Shown here piece by piece: positions 1 to 15,690 of a stretch of DNA of 64,000 nucleotides. The DNA is from Sulfuracidifex tepidarius (GTDB lineage Archaea > Thermoproteota > Thermoprotei_A > Sulfolobales > Sulfolobaceae). Under the pieces are notes generated by a model, which was not told the origin of the DNA, made no database searches, and saw nothing but the letters and a program-made list of their open reading frames with translations. The position numbers were made by a program, and so were the translations under genes. How positions within the stretch are numbered: the stretch's first letter is position 1; each line of letters opens with the position of its first letter. Location: positions 1,130,875-1,194,874 of the forward strand of contig NZ_AP018929.1 in assembly GCF_008326425.1 (NCBI RefSeq), written 5' to 3'.

Positions 1-605
1 GACTCCAGTCTTTCCAGCCCCATTGAAATATATCTTCCTATTAAAATTATAGCTACAACAATCGCAATCACTTCAACCGTGGAGATAACGATATGGCTTA
101 TGTCTTGAAGAATTGCAAACATCACAACTGCAATTATTTCGTCTATTATGACTTGGTAAAACAGATAGTTTCCTTGTAACCTCTTGCTCATCCCTACATC
201 GATCAGAAGTCTAGTTAGAGGTCCAGCACTGCTCATAGCTAAGGGGACAGATATTAGAAGGATGTTGTCGAAACCTCCTAATGCGTACAGACTCAAGACT
301 ATTATTAAGAAAGGGAAGGAAAGTTGCAGTATAGCGGAAAGGAAGAACTTCTTCTCAATTTTAGTCTTGATTTCGAACTCTTCAGCCCCAGCTAAAAAAA
401 GGAGGAAGACTATACCCAGAGATGTGATGAAAGAAATGATACTGTTTACATGAACTATCCCTAGTCCACCTTCTCCCATCACTATTCCAGTGACTATAGA
501 GCCTACGAAGGGGACTAGTCCTATCCTCCTGAATCCCTCTTCTAGTGCTTTCGCTATGAAGAGCAGTATTCCTATGAAGAGTAAAGAAGTGACTTCAATA
601 GACAT
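1..605 (-). CDS. Kef/NhaP-type cation:proton antiporter, C-terminus outside window
   Basis: Membrane antiporter of the CPA superfamily, expected to exchange Na+ or K+ for H+ across the cytoplasmic membrane. The translation starts MSIEVTSLLFIGILLF and gives about five to six hydrophobic segments. It carries motifs typical of the family: 'LVPFVGSIVTGIVMG' in the first part, then 'FLLFLAGAEEF' and 'SAGPLTRLLIDVGMSK'. About 201 residues are present, and the rest lies beyond the left edge. The ATG at 603-605 is the first in-frame ATG. Identification comes from sequence pattern only; the transported ion cannot be told. Confidence 0.8.
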   Translation of the reverse strand, partial: MSIEVTSLLFIGILLFIAKALEEGFRRIGLVPFVGSIVTGIVMGEGGLGIVHVNSIISFITSLGIVFLLFLAGAEEFEIKTKIEKKFFLSAILQLSFPFLIIVLSLYALGGFDNILLISVPLAMSSAGPLTRLLIDVGMSKRLQGNYLFYQVIIDEIIAVVMFAILQDISHIVISTVEVIAIVVAIILIGRYISMGLERLE

Positions 606-832
606 TTGCGTAGAGATGGCTTTTGGGTCAAATATCTTTACTTATCATGTAAAATGGTTTACTTATAGCAGTTAGGAATTTCTTGATATTAAATGAAATA
701 ATTTATAAATATTATAAATATTTTATTATATGCTTTTAAAAATAATTCGTAAGAATAATCCAAGATCCTTCAAGCCTATGTTCGTTCTAGAGAATAGTAG
801 TGCTTATATTTTTTAGACAATATAAACAAACC
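606..832. other. AT-rich divergent intergenic region
   Basis: The region between the leftward antiporter and the rightward acryloyl-CoA reductase is very AT-rich (about 680-750) with several TATA-like stretches such as ttataaata. Promoters for both genes are expected here. No RNA gene or repeat was recognised. Confidence 0.4.
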
Positions 833-1834
833 ATGAAAGCTGTAGTAGTAACTGGACACAAACAAGGGTATAAAGTTCAGGACGTCAGCGACCCTAAACC
901 AGAGAAAGGGGAATTGGTAGTGAAAGTAGATAGGGCTGCACTTTGTTACAGGGACACACTCCAGCTAAAGGGTTTCTATCCCAGGATGAAATACCCAGTA
1001 ATCTTAGGTCATGAGGTAGTAGGTACTGTGGAACAAGTTGGCGAAGACGTGACCCAATTTAAAGAAGGAGATAAGGTAATATCCCTGCTTTACGCTCCTG
1101 ATGGAGAATGTGAGTATTGTAGAGCTGGAGAGGAGGCTTATTGCCATCATAGGCTCGGGTACTCAGAAGAACTAGACGGGTTCTTCGCAGAGAAGGCAAA
1201 GCTGAAAGTCACGAGCGTGATCAAGGTTCCTTCAGGTGCATCTGACGAAGGGGCAGTTTTAGTCCCTTGTGTCACAGGTATGGTGTATAGAGGTCTCACA
1301 AGGGCAAAACTGAAGAAAGGAGAAACTATCCTAGTCACAGGAGCCAGCGGAGGGGTAGGCATACACGCTATACAAGTCGCGAAGGCTATGGGAGCCAAAG
1401 TGATAGGTGTGACCACTTCGCAGGAAAAGGCTGATGCTGTAGGCAAATTCGCAGATCATGTCATAGTAGGTAAAGAATTTTCTTCTGAAGCAAAAAAGAT
1501 TTCCGATATAAATGTAATTGTAGATACGGTAGGTACGCCTACTCTGGAGGAAGACCTCAAGTCCCTTTGGATGGGTGGAAGGATAGTTCAGATCGGCAAC
1601 GTTGATCCGTCAGCTCCTTTCAATTTGAAGCTAGGTTACGTAATACTGAAGGATATAGAAATCATAGGGCATGCGTCGGCAACTAAGAAGGACGCTGAGG
1701 GGGCCCTGAAACTTACAGCTGAGGGTAAGATAAATCCAGTGATAGCAGGCACTCTTCCTTTGGAAGAAGTAGATAAGGGGTATGAGCTACTTAAGGATAA
1801 ATCCAAAGTGGGCAAAGTCTTGTTGAAGCCTTGA
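833..1834 (+). CDS. acryloyl-CoA reductase (NADPH), zinc-type MDR family
   Basis: Reduces acryloyl-CoA to propionyl-CoA in the 3-hydroxypropionate/4-hydroxybutyrate CO2-fixation cycle of Sulfolobales. The 333-residue protein closely resembles the characterised Sulfolobales enzyme as I remember it, for example 'ALCYRDTLQLKGFYPRMKYP' and 'LWMGGRIVQIGNVDPS'. It has the MDR catalytic GHE motif, a cysteine cluster GECEYCRAGEEAYC (structural zinc in this superfamily) and a Rossmann motif GASGGVGIHAIQVAK. The start at 833 (MKAVVV) matches the family. An in-frame TTG-type start upstream would add residues with no family support. Other alcohol-dehydrogenase activities are the alternative. Confidence 0.85.
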   Translation: MKAVVVTGHKQGYKVQDVSDPKPEKGELVVKVDRAALCYRDTLQLKGFYPRMKYPVILGHEVVGTVEQVGEDVTQFKEGDKVISLLYAPDGECEYCRAGEEAYCHHRLGYSEELDGFFAEKAKLKVTSVIKVPSGASDEGAVLVPCVTGMVYRGLTRAKLKKGETILVTGASGGVGIHAIQVAKAMGAKVIGVTTSQEKADAVGKFADHVIVGKEFSSEAKKISDINVIVDTVGTPTLEEDLKSLWMGGRIVQIGNVDPSAPFNLKLGYVILKDIEIIGHASATKKDAEGALKLTAEGKINPVIAGTLPLEEVDKGYELLKDKSKVGKVLLKP

Positions 1835-1844
1835 CGTTAAATTA

Positions 1845-1871
1845 GATATAACTTAAAGGATATAACTTAAA
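1845..1871. repeat. 13-nt tandem direct repeat
   Basis: Two exact copies of gatataacttaaa at 1845-1857 and 1859-1871, separated by one base, just after the reductase stop. Short and of unknown meaning. It could be a regulator half-site pair or chance in AT-rich DNA. Confidence 0.5.
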
Positions 1872-1999
1872 CGTAGATAGTATTACTAAAACCAGTGTTT
1901 TTTCACTTATTTATTCAGTAATTCATTTTTTAAAGAAAGGAGAAAGTATTTGGTTGGGTTTCAGCAATCTCGAGATCTAGTCATTAAGAGATCTGAATG

Positions 2000-2009
2000 T
2001 TTTTAAAAG
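2000..2009 (+). promoter_or_regulatory. TATA box upstream of mini-ORF and amidase
   Basis: tttttaaaag is centred about 27 nt before the ATG at 2032, the usual distance from TATA to transcription start in Sulfolobales. The transcript would therefore begin at that ATG (leaderless), not at the amidase ATG at 2099. Confidence 0.5.
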
Positions 2010-2031
2010 GTTTATCGACTAAATTAAGTAC

Positions 2032-2151
2032 ATGGAGAAAGAGATCGATGACCCTCTATCTATAAAAATGCCCCCTCCACTCTTCTGCATGACCGAAGAT
2101 GACGTTAGAAGAATTAAACTCGAAATACAATGCATTCATAACATTTCATGA
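2032..2151 (+). CDS. possible 39-aa leaderless mini-ORF overlapping the amidase start
   Basis: An ATG sits exactly where the TATA box at 2000-2009 predicts the transcript 5' end. It opens a 39-codon frame (MEKEIDDPLSIKMPPPLFCM, then TEDDVRRIKLEIQ) that ends at TGA 2149-2151, out of frame with the amidase that begins at 2099. The segment TEDDVRRI resembles the start of GatC-type proteins, but the frame stops soon after. It may be a regulatory upstream ORF, a real micropeptide, or the true amidase N-terminus separated by a +1 shift. Confidence 0.35.
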   Translation: MEKEIDDPLSIKMPPPLFCMTEDDVRRIKLEIQCIHNIS

Positions 2152-3298
2152 GATCCCCCCTGAAAAGGAAGGGTCACTGTCAGGCCTCACGTTTGGAGTT
2201 AAGGACATTTTCCTTACAAAGGGAGTAAGAACTACAGCTGGATCTAGGGTATTAAAGGACTACGTGCCTAAAGAGAACGCTTATGTTGTGGATCAAATTT
2301 TAAAGAACGGTGGTAAGATAATTGGAAAGACCAACACACACGAGTTCGCCCTTGGAGCGACTAACACGTCTTCTATAGCAGGCCCGGCTAGGAATCCCCA
2401 TGACCCAACTAGGATAAGTGGAGGTTCGAGTGGAGGTTCAGCTGTAGCTGTAGCTCTAGACATGGTGGACGTAGGAATTGGATCCGATACTGGAGGGTCA
2501 ACGCGAATACCTGCGTCTCTGTGTGGTGTCATAGGTTTCAAGCCTACCACTGGCCTGATACCATTAGACGGTGTCATTCCTTTCAGTTGGTCCATGGATA
2601 CGGTAGGCATACTGTCTAAGGCATTTGACAAGATATTGTTAACTTTCAATTCATTATTACCTTACGATAAGAGGAAAGTCTTAGTTTCTCAAATGCCCTC
2701 CAAACTTAAAATAGGAGTTTACCTCTTCGGGGACGACCAAGGCTCCTCATCACTCTCTAGAGTGTTAGATAAGATCTCTTCTGAATTCGAAGTGAAACAA
2801 GTCAATCTCAATATGCTTACATACTTCGGAGGTCAAGTCAGACAGACCATAGCCGTAGCTGAGGCTTCCTCGTATCATAAGGAGTGGATAAATTCGTACG
2901 CAGGCCTCTACTTTGATGATACGAAGAACATTCTCCTTTCAGGATTTAAGATATCTGCTGTAGACTATGTAGATGCCATGAGAGCTAGGAGGGCATTACT
3001 AGAGGAGTACCTAAGGGCCTTTAGGGACGTAGACGTGATAATATCCCCTACAACCAAGATAGTTGCACCCAAAATAGATGAGGTCAAAGGAAGGGAATCT
3101 CAGTTCAGGTACCAACTCATTTCAAACACAGAACTATTCAGCGTAGTTGGAGCACCATCAATTTCGATACCGTTAGGATCAGGACCAGAAGGACTTCCTT
3201 TAGGGCTTATGGTTAGCGGTGAGCCGTTTGAGGATGGGAAATTACTCAGGATAGCGTCCTTTCTTAATGAGCAATTTGGTTCTAAGCAAGTTTCTTAA
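2099..3298 (+). CDS. amidase-signature family hydrolase
   Basis: The 399-residue amidase-signature enzyme cleaves carbon-nitrogen amide bonds; the substrate is unknown. The Ser-cisSer-Lys triad is visible: Lys in 'FGVKDIF', and the serines in the glycine-rich blocks 'GGSSGGSAVAVA' and 'GSDTGGSTRIPAS', followed by 'GVIGFKPT'. GatA of the tRNA amidotransferase is the closest well-known relative, but this protein is shorter than GatA and no complete gatC or gatB is beside it. The start at 2099 is the first ATG after an in-frame TGA at 2090-2092. It has no clear Shine-Dalgarno. Confidence 0.8.
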   Translation: MTLEELNSKYNAFITFHEIPPEKEGSLSGLTFGVKDIFLTKGVRTTAGSRVLKDYVPKENAYVVDQILKNGGKIIGKTNTHEFALGATNTSSIAGPARNPHDPTRISGGSSGGSAVAVALDMVDVGIGSDTGGSTRIPASLCGVIGFKPTTGLIPLDGVIPFSWSMDTVGILSKAFDKILLTFNSLLPYDKRKVLVSQMPSKLKIGVYLFGDDQGSSSLSRVLDKISSEFEVKQVNLNMLTYFGGQVRQTIAVAEASSYHKEWINSYAGLYFDDTKNILLSGFKISAVDYVDAMRARRALLEEYLRAFRDVDVIISPTTKIVAPKIDEVKGRESQFRYQLISNTELFSVVGAPSISIPLGSGPEGLPLGLMVSGEPFEDGKLLRIASFLNEQFGSKQVS

Positions 3299-3313
3299 GC
3301 TTTCAAGATAATC

Positions 3314-3973
3314 ATGACTAGGTGCATCTATAACTTGAGCGAAGTTAACTTGAAAGACAAGATATTAAAGGGAACTACAACAGTAGGACTGAAAGTTAGA
3401 GACGGAGTTGTACTAGCTGCTGACAGAAGGGCTAGCGCTGGAGTCTATGTAGCTCATAAATTTGTGAGGAAAGTGCTTTACGTTACTGATACCATAGGAG
3501 TTACTACAGCAGGGAGTGTTGCAGATATACAATTTGTATATAATATTTTAAAGAATATATATAACTATAATAGGATAAGCGGTAGCGGTCCAATAACGGT
3601 GAAAGGACTAGCCATGTACCTAGGTACCATGCTTTCAAGAAATAAATACTTCCCTTACGTAGTGCAGATCCTTTTAGGCGGATATGACAGTAACGGCTCA
3701 TCTCTATATAATTTAGATTACATAGGCGATGTCACAGAGGAACGTTACACCGCTACAGGTTCAGGATCCCCAGTAGCTGTAGGTGTATTAGAGGATGGCT
3801 ATAGGGAAGACCTATCCTTAGATGAGGCTGCAGACCTAGCTAGAAGAGCAGTTTTCTCCGCAATAAAGAGAGATTCCTTCACTGGTACTGGAGTTATAGT
3901 TACAAAGCTAAGCAAATCAGGTCATGAAGAGAGGGAGTTCTACATCAAGAAAGGGATAACAGAGGGGCAGTAG
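3314..3973 (+). CDS. psmB: 20S proteasome beta subunit, active type
   Basis: Catalytic beta subunit of the archaeal 20S proteasome, which degrades proteins fed by PAN or Cdc48 ATPases. The translation has a 20-residue propeptide ending in Gly20, followed by Thr21 (TTTVGLK). Counted from Thr21 as residue 1, the catalytic partners Asp17 (in LAADRR) and Lys33 (in KFVRK) are both present, so this is a proteolytically competent subunit. Sulfolobales usually encode two beta subunits; the other is not in this window. The gene starts 15 nt after the amidase stop. Confidence 0.93.
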
Positions 3974-4006
3974 CGTTTTTATAACGAGTTTTTATATATA
4001 TCTTAT

Positions 4007-4450
4007 ATGATAGTAAAATCGGTTTTCAAAGAAGGGGAATTTATTCCATCGAAGTACACGTGTGATGGTGAAGATATCTCTCCGAAGCTTTCATGGGATA
4101 AGGTCGAGAACGCTAAGTCTTATGCCCTCATCATGGAGGATCCGGACGCTCCTTCAGGGATTTTCATCCACTGGATAGCCTATAACATGAAGTCGAATTC
4201 CTTAGACGAAGGTGTACCTAGAAGGGAGAAGATCGGTGAGATGATACAAGGGGAAAACGATTTCGGAAACGTGGGCTATGGTGGGCCATGCCCACCGAGG
4301 TCTCACGACGCTCATAGGTACTTCATCAGAGTTTATGCCCTAGATTCCGATGTAGGCAGGAAGATGACGTTAGAGGAGCTCAGAGAATTCATCGGAGCTC
4401 ATAAGATAGATGAAGGATATATAATGGGGAAATACAAGAGAGCAAAATGA
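4007..4450 (+). CDS. YbhB/YbcL (PEBP, Raf-kinase-inhibitor-like) family protein
   Basis: 147 residues, the usual length of prokaryotic PEBP proteins. Family hallmarks are present: 'CDGEDISPKLSW', 'IMEDPDAPSGIFIHWIAYN', and 'GYGGPCPPRSHDAHRYFIRVYALD'. These form the anion-binding pocket. The cellular role in archaea is unknown. The upstream sequence 'tttttatatatcttatATG' gives a TATA-like element close to the start, though the best promoter spacing is unclear. Confidence 0.85.
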   Translation: MIVKSVFKEGEFIPSKYTCDGEDISPKLSWDKVENAKSYALIMEDPDAPSGIFIHWIAYNMKSNSLDEGVPRREKIGEMIQGENDFGNVGYGGPCPPRSHDAHRYFIRVYALDSDVGRKMTLEELREFIGAHKIDEGYIMGKYKRAK

Positions 4451-4880
4451 ATATATAGAGAGATAAGATCACAAGTTGTCAAGACTCTGAAATAATCTCT
4501 CATTAGATGTGCGTGACGGCCTAAATCTGCTTTTTCTTTCCAGATTTCTTTAATGTCTGGTGATAAATGGCCAGATCTATCGGCCGATTCAGGTCTACAT
4601 TGCAGATTGTAATTATGGCAAGAAAACAGATCGAATAAGGGAAATTGTTAAGCCTGAATCCTTACTAACCCATACGTTCTTTCGATTAAATTCATTCTAT
4701 TTCGATAAATAAACTGAATTCGCAAAGGAGACGTGAATCTCCCGATCTGTCGATAAAGATAGCTTTGTTTCACCTCAAGAGGAGAAGTTGGAAATTATGA
4801 TAGAGCCTTGATCCTGTCGAACGTTTCAGGCGTGGTGTATAGAGTCTTGAATCTATGGGCCCTCTAAAAAGTGAAGAAGA
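4451..4880. other. 430-bp gene-free stretch with inverted repeats and a possible relic
   Basis: No convincing gene. There is an inverted repeat ccaga...tctgg around 4540-4560, and GGCC-containing dyads near 4568-4586. On the minus strand 4795-4863 reads as a 22-codon peptide tail (RAHRFKTLYTTPETFDRIKA, then LS and stop). This looks protein-like but is cut by an in-frame TAG upstream. It may be a decayed gene downstream of the ABC cassette. Confidence 0.35.
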
Positions 4881-5531
4881 TCAGGCAATCAATTTGTCCG
4901 GTTTTATGGATCTACCTAACACGAACGTGAGGACTATCGCGAGGATCAATGTGGAGACCCCTACATAAAGCATGGCTTGGCTTATGGCACTGCTTCTCAC
5001 TGCAACTCCTAGGTAAATATATGAGAAGAGGATTACATATCCGATGTATGTGCCTAGGGGAGATCTAGAGGAACCCACATTAGCCTGAAAATACGAAATA
5101 TACAGCGATATAGGTACTACTATCCATGAGATTCCGATAGCATTGATTAGAATGATCAAGGTGTAATACAAGTTATTTAGCAGGAGTCCCAGTAGAGCTG
5201 ATACTACTATTGTAGTTGGAATTGATATTAGGAGGAAGCTGTAGATGTAACTAACGTAAAGTTTCGCTGGAGAGAGGCCTTGCGAAACCAAGAACTCTAA
5301 AAGCCCTGACTGTCTGTCGTCATTGAAGAGCGATATCACTAGAGACGAGAACGTTATCCCGAAGAACGAGGGAGATAGAACCAATGAGCTCAAGAGGAAG
5401 TACGCATCCTCTCTGATCCTGAATATCTCGTAGAGGTTCAGCAGGAGCATCACAGCGGACGCCGCGATTAGATACACTGTGGTGGTCTTGCTTCTCCTTA
5501 CAGTTCTCTTGAGGAAAGTTAAAGGTATCAT
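4881..5531 (-). CDS. ABC-2 type transporter permease
   Basis: 216-residue integral membrane protein with about six hydrophobic segments after a basic N-terminus (FLKRTVRRSK). It includes the short polar loop 'FNDDRQSGLLEFLVSQGLSP', which is typical of ABC-2 permeases: a coupling helix after the second transmembrane segment. It is the last gene of a leftward cassette and begins 4 nt after the ATPase stop, so it is the obvious partner of that ATPase. The cargo is unknown. The peptide gene upstream in the same cassette makes peptide export or self-protection the first guess (inference). Confidence 0.8.
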   Translation of the reverse strand: MIPLTFLKRTVRRSKTTTVYLIAASAVMLLLNLYEIFRIREDAYFLLSSLVLSPSFFGITFSSLVISLFNDDRQSGLLEFLVSQGLSPAKLYVSYIYSFLLISIPTTIVVSALLGLLLNNLYYTLIILINAIGISWIVVPISLYISYFQANVGSSRSPLGTYIGYVILFSYIYLGVAVRSSAISQAMLYVGVSTLILAIVLTFVLGRSIKPDKLIA

Positions 5532-5535
5532 GAGA

Positions 5536-6339
5536 TCACCTGAGCAGGTCCTCGAGAGGGTTACTCATTTCCTTTATCTCGTATATCTTGATATTCTTGT
5601 TCATAATTTTCTGGATGATCGGATTTACTTCTTCTGGGTCCTTTAATTTTATCACGAAATAATCTCCTCTCTTAGTACAGTCTACTATGCCGGAGATGTC
5701 CTCTGAAGCCCTTATTCCTATCTCGTAATCCGATGTCCTCAACTCGCTTATAGGGAGGAAGGTTGAGATCTTTCCTTCGTTAAGAACGATTACGAACCTA
5801 CCCAGTTCTCTAGCTTCATATAAGTTGTGTGATGTATAGAGTATCACTTTGTCCTTGGAGAGTTGCGTTATCCTCTGCCTGAGCTTAGACGCGACCTCAG
5901 GATCCAAGTTCTCAGTAGGTTCGTCCATGAGGATGACGTTGTAGTCCAGCATCATAGACTTGGCTATGCTTACCCTCTTCTTTTGACCTTGAGAGAGCTG
6001 AGATATCTTCTTGTCCAACAAGGGTTGAAGCTCCAAGTCTTGGATTACCTTATCCTGATCGCCGCCTATCATTTCCTTGAAGAACGATAATGCTTCCCTC
6101 ACAGTCATCTCTTGAGGTAGTCCTAGTGAATGGGAAAGGTAGCCTACCCTCTTTCCCTCAACTGAGACCGAACCTCTCCACGGGGAAAGGATTCACGCTA
6201 TTACCCTAAGGGTCGTGGTCTTTCCAGCCCCGTTCTTTCCCAGGAGTACATATATCCCTGGCTCGTTTAAAGACATACTTACCCCGTGAAGAACTTCTTT
6301 GTTGCCGTAACCGGCGTAAACGTCTTTTAGGGAGATCAC
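5536..6339 (-). pseudogene. ABC transporter ATP-binding protein interrupted by an in-frame TGA
   Basis: From GTG 6337-6339 the frame reads ISLKDVYAGYG..., with Walker A 'GKNGAGKT' at residues 34-41, then LRVIA and a TGA at 6193-6195. The frame resumes with ILSPWRGSVSVEG, Q-loop region, signature 'LSQGQKKR', Walker B 'VILMDEP' and a C-terminal extension to 5536. ABC ATPases normally have 'AGIL' here, so GGA to TGA is a single-base change. The start is supported by an ideal Shine-Dalgarno ggaggtga that overlaps the upstream stop. A restart at ATG 6106-6108 would lack Walker A. A nonsense mutation, readthrough, or a base-call error could explain it. Confidence 0.8.
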
Positions 6340-6343
6340 AATA

Positions 6344-6577
6344 TCACCTCCTTCTCGGAAGGAAGATCAGCGAGACTACGAAGGTGAGAACTCCTACCAT
6401 TATCATGAAAGGATAGCCGGAGAAACCTAAGATTTCCATAACCCCACTAAGTACAAGAAGAGCCACGCCTACCTTCTTGTTAGGCTTTACCTTAACTACG
6501 TAAATTATCAGAGGCACGGCTAAGAACACAGCTAAGGGCAGAACGAAAAAAGTGATCTCTTGGCTCAAGGTAGGCAT
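6344..6577 (-). CDS. 77-aa membrane protein of the ABC cassette
   Basis: Small protein starting MPTLSQEITFF with about three hydrophobic segments and a basic C-terminal tail (PRRR). The ATG at 6575-6577 is preceded by GGTG at a good distance; an upstream ATG in the same frame would run through the peptide gene in the wrong frame. It sits between the cysteine-rich peptide and the ABC ATPase, and its stop overlaps the ATPase Shine-Dalgarno. Size and position resemble immunity or accessory membrane proteins of peptide-export operons, but no family was recognised. Confidence 0.65.
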   Translation of the reverse strand: MPTLSQEITFFVLPLAVFLAVPLIIYVVKVKPNKKVGVALLVLSGVMEILGFSGYPFMIMVGVLTFVVSLIFLPRRR

Positions 6578-6587
6578 TACGTTACAC

Positions 6588-6737
6588 CTAGCAGAAAATT
6601 TCGCATGCGGATATCGCTGCTGCTTCGCCTGCGCATACATATCCGCACTCTAGGTTATCAGTTACTATTTCATAGGGGTTTCCGTCGCACTCTATGTCGA
6701 TGCAACCGATATATGCTTCAGCGTCTAAATAAGGCAT
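6588..6737 (-). CDS. 49-aa acidic six-cysteine peptide
   Basis: The ATG at 6735-6737 follows directly on the TAA of the upstream gene (6738-6740) and has GGGTGA about 8 nt before it. The stop is TAG 6588-6590. The peptide has Cys at 12, 17, 31, 35, 45 and 49 (pattern C-x4-C-x13-C-x3-C-x9-C-x3-C, last residue Cys), ten Asp/Glu, and no Lys, Arg or His. There is no signal peptide. It is co-directional and tightly packed with an ABC transporter. Possible roles are a disulfide-rich or modified secreted peptide, or a metal-binding peptide. No known family was recognised. Confidence 0.65.
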   Translation of the reverse strand: MPYLDAEAYIGCIDIECDGNPYEIVTDNLECGYVCAGEAAAISACEIFC

Positions 6738-7187
6738 TTAGCTCACCCTCTCCACATGTACAAAACTGAACCCCTCGGTTCTTATTTTTTCTGCAAGTTC
6801 TTCTCCCTCAAATTTATTCTTAGATAGTTTGTATCTGCCATCAACTATTTTTACTAGCTTAGTCCCGTCCTCAAGCATTTTCATTACCTTCATGTTAGTT
6901 TCTATGGAATCAGCTCTCCTTTCGGTTTTCCAGAATTTCTCTAGTATCATGGTCAATTTTTCTCCAAATTTAGTCACAACTACAACGAAGTGAGTTCCAT
7001 TACCTGCGTCTATAGTTACTTCATAACCCTCTGCTTTTTCGCTAATTACATGACCTATCTCAAATTCATCCATCTTTACTGAACCATAGTCTATTATTTT
7101 GAAGTTATTGGGTCTATATAAAATATTTCCTTTTATCTTTTCAAAAATATCTCCATTTTGAGTTATATCTTCGGTTTTTATTTCCAT
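6738..7187 (-). CDS. 149-aa orphan, first gene of the peptide/ABC cassette
   Basis: Starts MEIKTEDITQNG at ATG 7185-7187, with GGTGAT about 9 nt upstream. Earlier in-frame starts would read through an A-tract and look non-coding. The protein is soluble and rich in Lys/Glu, with a central beta-rich stretch ('GYEVTIDAGNGTHFVVVVTKFG') and a helical second half. No motif or family was recognised. Its stop abuts the peptide ATG, so the two are probably translated from one message. It could be a binding partner, modification factor or regulator of the peptide (inference). Confidence 0.6.
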   Translation of the reverse strand: MEIKTEDITQNGDIFEKIKGNILYRPNNFKIIDYGSVKMDEFEIGHVISEKAEGYEVTIDAGNGTHFVVVVTKFGEKLTMILEKFWKTERRADSIETNMKVMKMLEDGTKLVKIVDGRYKLSKNKFEGEELAEKIRTEGFSFVHVERVS

Positions 7188-7219
7188 CTTATCACCTAAT
7201 AGATAGGTAGACTTCTGCG

Positions 7220-7230
7220 TTTTTTTTTTT
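7220..7230. repeat. 11-base homopolymer T tract
   Basis: Eleven consecutive T on the plus strand (A on the minus strand), about 35 nt upstream of the 149-aa gene start and inside its likely promoter or leader. Such tracts are prone to slippage. On the plus strand the tract could also act as a terminator-like sequence, but no plus-strand gene ends here. Confidence 0.6.
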
Positions 7231-7475
7231 GCTGGTAATACTGAGCATGTCAAATCTGAAGAGGAGTATCACTTTTACTAAATAGAGGACTTTAACTGAA
7301 TAGTCTTCATGTTAACAACAATTTCTGAAAGGAAAACTTCTAATCTCGTTTATAGGTAGAATTATATAGACAAATAGTGCGTTTTAACTGAAATCTCTTT
7401 CATGACCTTTTTGATTCTCCTTGTGATCTTTAAGGCAGGATACATTAATAGGCATATCAATTAAAACAATAACAC

Positions 7476-8471
7476 ATGAGTACTCTTGAAGATGCTTTAT
7501 GGACCGAGAAGTACAGACCTAGAACTCTAAGCGAAGTAGTTAACCAGAAGGAGATAGTGGAGAGGTTGAAGAGGTTTATCTCAGAGAAGAACATGCCGCA
7601 CCTCCTTTTCGCGGGGTCACCAGGCACGGGAAAGACAACCATAGCTCTTGCCCTAGTCCGTGGCATGTTCGGGGAGAACTTTAGGGATTATTTCTTAGAG
7701 CTCAACGCTAGTGACGAGAGGGGAATAGACGTGATACGTAATAAAGTGAAAGAGTTCGCTAGAGCCTTGCCTGGCAAGGAAGTTCCTTTCAAAGTGATAC
7801 TCCTTGATGAAGCGGACAACATGACCTCAGATGCACAGCAAGCCCTCAGGAGGACGATGGAACTTTTCACCTCTACCACTAGGTTCATACTGGCTTGTAA
7901 TTACCTGAGCAAGATAATCGAGCCTATCCAATCGAGGACGGCGTTATTTAGGTTCTATCCGTTGAAAAAGGAGGATGTAGTTGCCCGGCTGATGTATATT
8001 GCAAACAAGGAAAAGGTATCTTACGACGAGGAAGCATTGAACGCAATATATGACGTCACCATGGGAGACATGAGGAAATCGATAAACCTGCTTCAGGCGT
8101 CATCTGCCTACGGCAAGGTCACGGTCGAATCGGTCTACAAGGTACTTGGTCTAGCTAAACCTAAGGAAATAGAGGAAATGATGAACTATGCGATCCAAGG
8201 TGATTTCACTAACGCCAGAAGCAAGTTAAGGGAACTTCTGATCACTTACGGCCTCTCGGGAGAGGATATAGTGAAACAAATGCACCGCGAGATAGTGGGA
8301 GGTAATTCCCTGAAGATACCTGAGGAGCTGAAGGTAGTCATCGCAGACTATTTGGGAGAGGCAGAGTTTAGAATAATAGAAGGAGCTGATGATGATATTC
8401 AGCTAAGTGCAGTTTTAGCTAAACTTTCCATATTGGGAAGCAAATATGTGGGAGAGAGTGTGCATAAGTGA
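7476..8471 (+). CDS. rfcS: replication factor C small subunit
   Basis: ATPase subunit of the clamp loader, which opens PCNA and places it on primed DNA. 331 residues with RFC boxes in order: '[13 protein letters not shown]', Walker A 'GSPGTGKTT' near residue 48, Walker B 'LLDEADNM', and sensor/arginine-finger region 'QQALRRTME'. The gene ends in a 4-nt overlap with rfcL (GTGA), so the two subunits are translationally coupled. Confidence 0.97.
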
Positions 8472-9748
8472 GCAACCTTCAATGGTTCATAAAGTATAGA
8501 CCTAAGTCACTGTCAGAAGTGGAAAACCAGGAGGAGGCCAAGGAAGAGCTGAAGTCTTGGATAGAGAGCTGGATTCAAGGGAAGCCTAAATACAAGGCGG
8601 TTCTGCTTAACGGCCCTCCTGGAGTAGGGAAGACTACCATTGCTGAGGCATTAGCGAGGGATTACAACATGGAACTCTTGGAGATGAATGCGAGCGATTC
8701 CAGGAGGCTTAACGACATTAGAGAAATAGCCGAGAGGGCTTCCACCTCAAGTAGCTTGTTCGGAAAGGGAGGAAGGTTAATTCTCCTGGACGAAGTTGAC
8801 GGGATAAACAGTAGGCAAGACGCTGGGGCGATACCAGGAATATTAGATGTTATAGAAAGATCTAGGTTCCCGATAATTCTGACCGCAAACAATGCGTGGG
8901 ATCCGTCGTTAAGGGAACTTAGGACAGCTACAAAGATGATAGACTTACAGAGGTTAGGCAAGATACCTTTGAAGAAAATATTGGAAAGGATATGCAAGGC
9001 GGAAAAGGTGATTTGTGATCCTAAAGGGATAGGTGCAATAGCGGATCTCAGTGAAGGTGACGCTAGGTACGCCATCAACATGTTGCAAAGCGTAGCGGAG
9101 GTTTATAGGAAAGTCACGGAGGATCTAGTCAAAGACCTAGTCAGGAAAAAGGACAGGACTTTAGATCCATTCGAAACGTTAAGGGGAATATTTTGGGCCA
9201 AATACTTCTGGCAGGCTAGGGTGGCCGCAACTACTTCAGAGGTAGACTACGAATTGTTGCTGAGATGGCTTTCTGAGAACGTCCCAATTCAGTTCGACGA
9301 CATGGGGGACGTTTTCAGGGGGTTCGATGCTCTCAGTAGGGCGTCAGTTTTCCTGAAGAGGTCTAAGCTAGGTGACTGGGACCTCCTCAGTTACGTGTTT
9401 GACCTCATGGGGCCAGGTGTAGCTTTCGCAGAGTACTCTAAGTTGGGTGGACAATGGAAAGCTAAATGGAAGAAATACCAGTTCCCTACATACGTACAGC
9501 AGATGTCTAAAAGTAAGGACAGTAGGGACGCGCTGAAGACAGCTTCAGAGAAGATAGCGAAGGCCACTCATTGCTCATCCGATAAGGTCATAACGGACTA
9601 CGTCCCTTTCATGAAATTCATGAAGGTTGAGGGCTTCTCTCCTGAGGAAATCAAAGTCATGGGAAACTTGGAAGGACGGGAAACGGATGAGCACGAAGAA
9701 GGGAAGGAAAGGACAACGAGAGCCAGGAGAACTAGGAAGAGGACTTAA
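8468..9748 (+). CDS. rfcL: replication factor C large subunit
   Basis: Large subunit of the same clamp loader. 426 residues with GTG start overlapping the rfcS stop. Motifs: '[14 protein letters not shown]', Walker A 'GPPGVGKTT', Walker B '[10 protein letters not shown]'. The very basic C-terminus (RARRTRKRT) follows an acidic stretch; archaeal RfcL proteins commonly end in a PCNA-binding tail, but a clear PIP box is not seen here. The 3' end overlaps convergent moaC by 17 nt. Confidence 0.96.
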
Positions 9749-15309: not shown

Positions 15310-15690
15310 TGTTAAATTTGAGTTTTTCTTCCTCTCTCCTTTTGAGTCCAGGGTTCCTTTAAATAGTATAAGAAACGGCAATAATCATGTGAGCATGAGG
15401 AAGCTTGTGAAAAAAGGAGCTCAACTAGGTAGAAGTCTTAAGACTCAAACTCATTACCCAAGTAACATGAATGAATTTAATTGAAAGCTATGTATGGAAT
15501 AGAAGGACTCACGCTTAACAATTTCCTTTATCTGATCCACTTTTGCCATAATTACAATTTGCAATGGTAACCTGAATTGCCCTTATAAAACCTATTGAGC
15601 CTGAAGAAACAAGAAGAGGAGACAAAAATACGTATAATATACATATACAGAGAGATAGTTGCAATCCCTGCTTTCAATCACGGGTTGAGA
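15310..15690. other. gene-free stretch
   Basis: About 380 bp with no supported gene. A 29-codon frame starting ATG AGG AAG CTT near 15395 has no homology signal or good ribosome site. The 3' end of the leftward 71-aa gene follows. No RNA fold stood out. Confidence 0.35.

What the first reader, a model, noticed from the sequence alone, without database searches (positions are those of the whole stretch)
4881..7187. Cysteine-rich acidic peptide in a tight cassette with an ABC transporter and two orphan genes
Seen: five leftward genes with gaps of 0-10 nt and good Shine-Dalgarno sites: a 149-aa orphan, a 49-aa peptide with six Cys (last residue Cys) and ten acidic but no basic residues, a 77-aa membrane protein, an ABC ATPase and an ABC-2 permease. 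Known: ABC-2 transporters plus small membrane proteins often export, or protect against, ribosomally made peptides. Inference: this may be an archaeal secreted, disulfide-bonded or modified peptide system, or a metal-handling peptide. I know of no described Sulfolobales system with this make-up; the sulfolobicin genes look different.
Basis: partly seen in the sequence, partly recalled or inferred. Interest (0 to 1): 0.72.

Follow-up and report, generated by a model that had tools for sequence, protein, structure and literature searches.

The report
Archaeal cysteine-rich peptide and exporter cassette
A small mobile gene cassette in heat- and acid-loving archaea pairs a conserved six-cysteine mini-protein with an unknown partner protein and a dedicated membrane pump; it looks like a bacteriocin-type weapon-and-immunity set, but in this strain the pump's motor gene is interrupted by a stop codon.

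Summary
The five leftward genes are real (gaps 0, 10, 4, 4 nt; a GGTG-type Shine-Dalgarno before each). One correction: the ABC ATPase is interrupted by an in-frame TGA (6193-6195) at codon 49, where relatives have Gly, so this copy is damaged or misread. The cassette is a ~2.9 kb insertion between two genes (PEBP, rfcS) that are adjacent in four relatives; a sister genome keeps only a broken fragment of the first gene. The same five-gene order recurs in three genomes of two other genera. The 49-aa peptide is 45% identical there, all six Cys conserved, with dN/dS 0.1-0.3 within that clade. A wider partner+peptide family, without transporter, occurs in further genomes and is often decayed; in two genomes it lies ~1 kb from a halocin C8-like precursor. 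The membrane-protein/ATPase/permease module also occurs in two lineages beside a different Cys-rich microprotein. Best reading: a leaderless, bacteriocin-like Cys-rich peptide with a partner (immunity or chaperone) protein and an ABC export/immunity pump. Profile tests found no homology to halocin C8; the genome has no YcaO. No activity is shown.

The parts
6738..7187 (-). orf149: soluble 149-aa orphan (27 acidic, 24 basic, no Cys, no membrane segment), proposed immunity/chaperone partner of the peptide
   Evidence: relatives in 10 of 31 family genomes; no Pfam, NCBIfam or PADLOC family; 34% GC against 43% for the window
6588..6737 (-). pep49: 49-aa acidic six-Cys peptide without a signal sequence
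   Evidence: all six Cys kept in three orthologs; dN/dS 0.11-0.32 within the G078/G125/G090 group
6344..6577 (-). 77-aa membrane protein (hydrophobic segments, C-terminal PRRR), proposed pump accessory
   Evidence: ortholog in G078, G125, G090
5536..6339 (-). ABC transporter ATPase (GTG start), interrupted by an in-frame stop
   Evidence: PF00005 E = 4.6e-25 when read through; 56-57% identical to relatives
6193..6195 (-). in-frame TGA at codon 49 of the ATPase, Gly in relatives
4881..5531 (-). ABC-2-like permease, 216 aa
   Evidence: 48-49% identical to relatives; no Pfam match
4451..7475 (.). inserted segment between PEBP (ends 4450) and rfcS (starts 7476)
   Evidence: the two genes are 160 bp apart in G066 and are neighbours without cassette in G078, G042 and G022
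4640..4744 (-). copy of an interspersed repeat about 140 bp downstream of the permease; related copies also follow the permease in G125 and G078
   Evidence: whether it belongs to the cassette is not known

Best explanation
The cassette encodes a leaderless, cysteine-rich, bacteriocin-like (antagonistic) peptide, pep49, together with a soluble partner (orf149) that keeps it harmless or folded inside the cell, and an ABC pump (77-aa membrane protein + ATPase + permease) that exports the peptide and/or keeps it out of the producer's membrane. Shown: conserved gene order, conserved Cys, purifying selection on the peptide, insertion as a unit, association of the same transporter family with a second Cys-rich microprotein, and proximity of a paralog to a halocin C8-like precursor. 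Inferred: export of the peptide by this pump, disulfide bonding, the immunity/chaperone role of orf149, and killing or growth inhibition. In this strain the ATPase nonsense codon probably disables the pump (or is a read error), so this copy may be decaying.
For: Five-gene order in G078, G125, G090. Peptide Cys pattern and dN/dS. No signal-like hydrophobic segment in pep49, so any export needs a dedicated route. Patchy, mobile, often decayed distribution typical of weapon/immunity genes: empty site in relatives, remnant in G183, partner+peptide family in 10 of 31 genomes with several broken copies. Pair without pump in G066. Paralog about 1 kb from a TIGR04449 halocin C8-like precursor in two genomes. 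Same transporter family beside another Cys-rich microprotein in G042 and G203.
Against: No antimicrobial activity, secretion or modification is shown. orf149 and pep49 are not homologous to halocin C8 or its N-domain by profile comparison. The peptide is acidic, whereas many bacteriocins are cationic. Weaker relatives of the pump in G502 and G509 have no Cys-rich peptide nearby. The pair occurs without a pump in several genomes. The ATPase of this copy is interrupted. The halocin-adjacent arrangement is shared by descent between the two genomes and counts once.
Confidence: 0.5

Rival explanations
1. Signalling peptide: pep49 is an exported pheromone, the ABC pump is its exporter, and orf149 is a cytosolic chaperone or sensor.
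For: Same anatomy: leaderless small peptide plus dedicated pump; purifying selection rather than rapid diversification among the close orthologs.
Against: No receptor or regulator gene in the cassette. Patchy, often decayed distribution, and a paralog next to a halocin C8-like precursor, fit conflict genes better.
Confidence: 0.17
2. Metal- or redox-handling: pep49 is a metallothionein-like or Fe-S/Cu-binding peptide and the ABC pump exports metal or thiol conjugates.
For: Six Cys and ten acidic residues in 49 aa; acidic hot springs are metal-rich (general knowledge).
Against: No CxC or CxxC motif (spacings 4, 13, 3, 9, 3 residues), no His, no metal-regulated gene next to the cassettes, patchy and decaying distribution.
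Confidence: 0.12
3. Intracellular pair: orf149 and pep49 form a toxin-antitoxin-like or enzyme-regulator complex that stays in the cytosol; the pump serves another substrate.
For: orf149 and pep49 are joined without a gap and occur together without the pump in G066 and others.
Against: The pump is linked to the pair in three genomes of two other genera plus this one, and the same pump family accompanies another Cys-rich microprotein.
Confidence: 0.16
4. In this strain the cassette is a decaying remnant without function, whatever the system does elsewhere (compatible with the best explanation).
For: Nonsense codon in the ATPase; the sister genome has lost all but a broken orf149; a second partner/peptide copy in this genome is broken.
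Against: The other four genes are intact with intact Shine-Dalgarno sites, all ATPase motifs outside the stop are preserved, and a sequencing error cannot be excluded.
Confidence: 0.45

Closest known systems
Halocin C8 / HalI of haloarchaea (NCBIfam TIGR04449 halocin_C8_dom)
   Same: Archaeal Cys-rich small peptide made together with a partner that gives immunity (PMC11509114, PMC8628083); TIGR04449-type precursors occur in this very genome, one of them next to a paralog of the orf149+peptide pair.
   Different: Halocin C8 is the C-terminal part of one precursor exported by the Tat route (PMC11509114); here peptide and partner are separate genes, without signal sequence, with an ABC pump. No sequence or profile homology.
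Leaderless bacteriocins with ABC transporter (enterocin DD14, aureocin A53)
   Same: Small peptide without leader, accessory proteins and a multi-component ABC transporter for export and, in some cases, immunity (PMC8657885).
   Different: No homology of the peptides was sought or seen; pep49 is Cys-rich and acidic; the PH-domain accessory proteins of those clusters are not matched by orf149 or the 77-aa protein.
Sulfolobicin of Sulfolobus
   Same: Proposed role: antagonism between Sulfolobales.
   Different: Sulfolobicin is described as two proteins with signal peptides (PMC8628083); pep49 has none and is much smaller. Sequences were not compared here.
Thermoacidophisin TOMM clusters of Sulfolobus
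   Same: Peptide cluster with ABC transporters described in S. acidocaldarius and S. islandicus (PMC4603692).
   Different: TOMM clusters need a YcaO cyclodehydratase; this genome has none, nor has G078, and in G042 and G090 the YcaO gene lies over 100 kb from the loci studied here.

Membership tests
Halocin C8 family (TIGR04449) | Halocin C8-like Cys domain over the curated cut-off | tested here: not met
   pep49 and its relatives have no TIGR04449 match; profile-profile with the Sulfolobaceae TIGR04449 domains finds no relation
Halocin C8 family (TIGR04449) | Partner/immunity domain homologous to the precursor's N-domain | tested here: not met
   orf149 profile against the N-domain of the halocin C8-like precursors of this family: probability 0.1%. 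Compared only with the Sulfolobaceae N-domain, not with haloarchaeal HalI.
Leaderless bacteriocin | Peptide without leader or signal sequence | tested here: met
   49 aa, no hydrophobic segment over the threshold; Cys region starts at residue 12. Absence of processing is not shown.
Leaderless bacteriocin | Antimicrobial activity | not testable with these tools
   needs a bench assay
TOMM (azole RiPP) | YcaO cyclodehydratase in the cluster or at least in the genome | tested here: not met
   no PF02624 match in G000
ABC transporter | ABC_tran domain with Walker A, signature, Walker B and H-loop | tested here: met
   PF00005 E = 4.6e-25 on the read-through frame and all motifs present, but the frame is interrupted at codon 49
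ABC transporter | Known ABC-2 permease family | tested here: not met
   no Pfam or NCBIfam match over a cut-off for the permease; call it ABC-2-like by size and gene context only
Lantibiotic-protection or bacteriocin-export ABC ATPase (TIGR03740, TIGR03608) | Score over the curated cut-off | tested here: not met
   95.1 and 87.7 bits against cut-offs of 309.75 and 254.85
Metallothionein-like peptide | CxC or CxxC clusters | tested here: not met
   Cys spacings are 4, 13, 3, 9 and 3 residues

The most novel reading that the evidence does not exclude
orf149+pep49 is the founding pair of a new archaeal class of leaderless, disulfide-rich antagonistic peptides with a dedicated soluble partner protein. 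It has spread through at least five genera of one thermoacidophile family and can plug into a shared membrane-protein/ATPase/permease export-immunity module that also serves a second, unrelated Cys-rich microprotein.
Probability: 0.3. Interest if true: 0.7.

Novelty: new variant of a known kind. Interest (0 to 1): 0.5.

Why it matters
Sulfolobicin was described in 2021 as the only characterised toxin of the Sulfolobales (PMC8628083). A conserved, mobile peptide/partner/pump cassette, with a related transporter locus in a genome that by its size is the genetically tractable S. acidocaldarius, would make peptide-based antagonism in thermoacidophilic archaea directly testable and would give a sequence signature for finding more such systems.

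Tried and rejected
Membership in halocin C8: tested by family models and profile-profile comparison, rejected. In one search one relative (G175) was read in a wrong frame; the comparison was repeated correctly. TOMM: no YcaO in this genome. PepSY-like fold for orf149: only E = 0.1 against PDB 9vy3 and no Pfam PepSY match, not claimed. Viral, phage or plasmid carriage: no relatives of orf149 in viral contigs, plasmids or phages, nor of the permease in viral contigs or plasmids. Single-sequence structure predictions were uninformative (orf149 pLDDT 33, pep49 pLDDT 50), so no fold search was run; relatives were not sent to the predictor because its stated rule does not list loci of that origin. 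Rfam: nothing near the cassette. The main survey of archaeal antimicrobial peptides (Makarova et al. 2019, mBio) is not held, so prior description there cannot be excluded.

Full report
OBSERVATION. The window (G000:C1:1130875-1194874 of a 2.56-Mb genome) has, on the minus strand, orf149 (7187-6738), pep49 (6737-6588), a 77-aa membrane protein (6577-6344), an ABC ATPase (6339-5536) and a permease (5531-4881). Gaps are 0, 10, 4 and 4 nt, and GGTG/GGTGA precedes all five starts. pep49 has 6 Cys, 10 acidic and no basic residues. The 56-57% identical relatives have Gly there, and every ATPase motif outside it is intact, so it is either a single recent nonsense change or a sequence error.

INSERTION. 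psmB, PEBP and rfcS are neighbours here, with the cassette between PEBP and rfcS on the opposite strand. In G066 (same genus) PEBP and rfcS are 160 bp apart with no cassette, and they are also close neighbours in G078, G042 and G022. In the near sister G183 (rfcS 97% identical) the site holds only a broken orf149 remnant. The simplest reading is that the cassette was inserted here as a ~2.9-kb unit before G000 and G183 split, and was then mostly lost in G183. orf149 is 34% GC against 43% for the window; the other four genes are 44-46%.

RECURRENCE. The full five-gene order is found in G078 and G125 (one genus) and G090 (another genus): ATPase 56-57%, permease 48-49%, peptide 45%, membrane protein about 36%, orf149 30-39% identity. 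In G125 the permease and in G090 orf149 are frameshifted. All six window Cys are kept in these three peptides. Between G078, G125 and G090 the peptide gene shows dN/dS 0.11-0.32; the excess of synonymous change has p = 0.003 (G078-G125), 0.02 (G078-G090) and 0.07 (G125-G090). Against the window copy synonymous sites are near saturation, so those ratios are rough.

WIDER FAMILY. A profile of orf149 matches 10 of 31 family genomes at E < 1e-7, and a profile of the peptide matches 8 at E < 0.01; some of these genomes supplied the profiles. G066 has an intact pair (150 aa + 60 aa) without a transporter nearby. In G175, G151, G136, G084 and in a second copy in this genome the genes are only partly intact. 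Two partner genes have ATA, behind a Shine-Dalgarno-like site, where others have ATG. The pair thus seems to be the core, and the pump optional.

LINK TO KNOWN BACTERIOCINS. The second copy in this genome, and its match in G175, lie about 1 kb downstream of a precursor with a halocin C8-type Cys domain (TIGR04449, 18-22 bits, just under the 24-bit cut-off), with a membrane protein between. A second TIGR04449 precursor in this genome is over the cut-off, and others occur in G022, G090, G131 and G146. Profile-profile comparison nevertheless shows no homology of orf149 to the precursor's N-domain, or of pep49 to its Cys domain. The two arrangements look alike through shared descent, so they count once.

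TRANSPORTER. Outside the cassettes the permease profile finds intact members in G042 and G203 and degraded copies in G131 and G136. In G042 and G203 the ATPase-permease pair, with a 74- or 84-aa membrane protein beside it, shares a locus with a different Cys-rich microprotein (G203: MPLTDLAAFLTCCSDCDCCGTATGAAICGTFAAGVSAATGDPIIIGTNNR; G042: the similar PLTDGIAYADCLCCGTVVGAVGCAGVAIAASAVSEDLVIEEE, lacking an ATG), an orphan protein and a second ABC-2 transporter. The 143-aa orphan of G042 is not related to orf149 by profile comparison. Weaker relatives of the pump in other Thermoproteota (G502, G509) have no such peptide nearby. G042 is 2,225,959 bp, which I recall as the size of S. acidocaldarius DSM 639; G078 is 2,694,756 bp, which I recall as Sulfurisphaera tokodaii 7. 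These names rest on memory only.

MECHANISM. Shown: cassette order in relatives, selection on the peptide, insertion as a unit, and association of the transporter family with two Cys-rich microproteins. Inferred: pep49 is made without a leader, held inactive or folded by orf149, exported and/or kept out of the membrane by the pump, and stabilised by disulfides in hot acid. In bacteria, leaderless bacteriocins depend on ABC pumps and accessory proteins (PMC8657885); in haloarchaea, halocin C8 is made with its own immunity partner (PMC11509114, PMC8628083). In this strain the pump is probably off unless the TGA is an error.

NOVELTY. No Pfam, NCBIfam or PADLOC family fits orf149, pep49 or the 77-aa protein; PHROGs gives only a weak match of orf149 to a family of unknown function (E = 0.0013 over 39 residues). 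No paper found describes the cassette, but the main survey of archaeal antimicrobial peptides was not readable. I rate it a new variant of a known kind.

Noticed in passing
window 4640-4744 (-); partial copy 15469-15526: Interspersed repeat of at least ~105 bp (conserved CACGTCTCCTTTGCGAATTCAGTTTATTT core), with over 20 copies in this genome and many in other Sulfolobaceae genomes. Shorter related copies also follow the cassette permease by about 200 bp in G125 and G078, so it may travel with the cassette or be a common 3' element.
   Followed up: partly
L070 6069-6728 (-) and L057 4960-5676 (+) (G000:C1:980574-980825 and 937415-937669): Two halocin C8-like precursor genes in the window's own genome, each followed by a 180-203-aa membrane protein; one over and one under the TIGR04449 cut-off.
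   Followed up: partly
L103 (G042) 5184-9353 and L104 (G203) 483-5539: Locus with two ABC transporters, an orphan protein and a CCGT-type Cys-rich microprotein (about 45-50 aa), in two distant archaeal families; it looks like another peptide export/immunity locus.
   Followed up: partly
L054 6183, L057 (paralog of orf149), L103 about 7157: ATA or ATT at the expected start codon of partner or peptide genes, behind Shine-Dalgarno-like sites: either decay or non-standard initiation.
   Followed up: no
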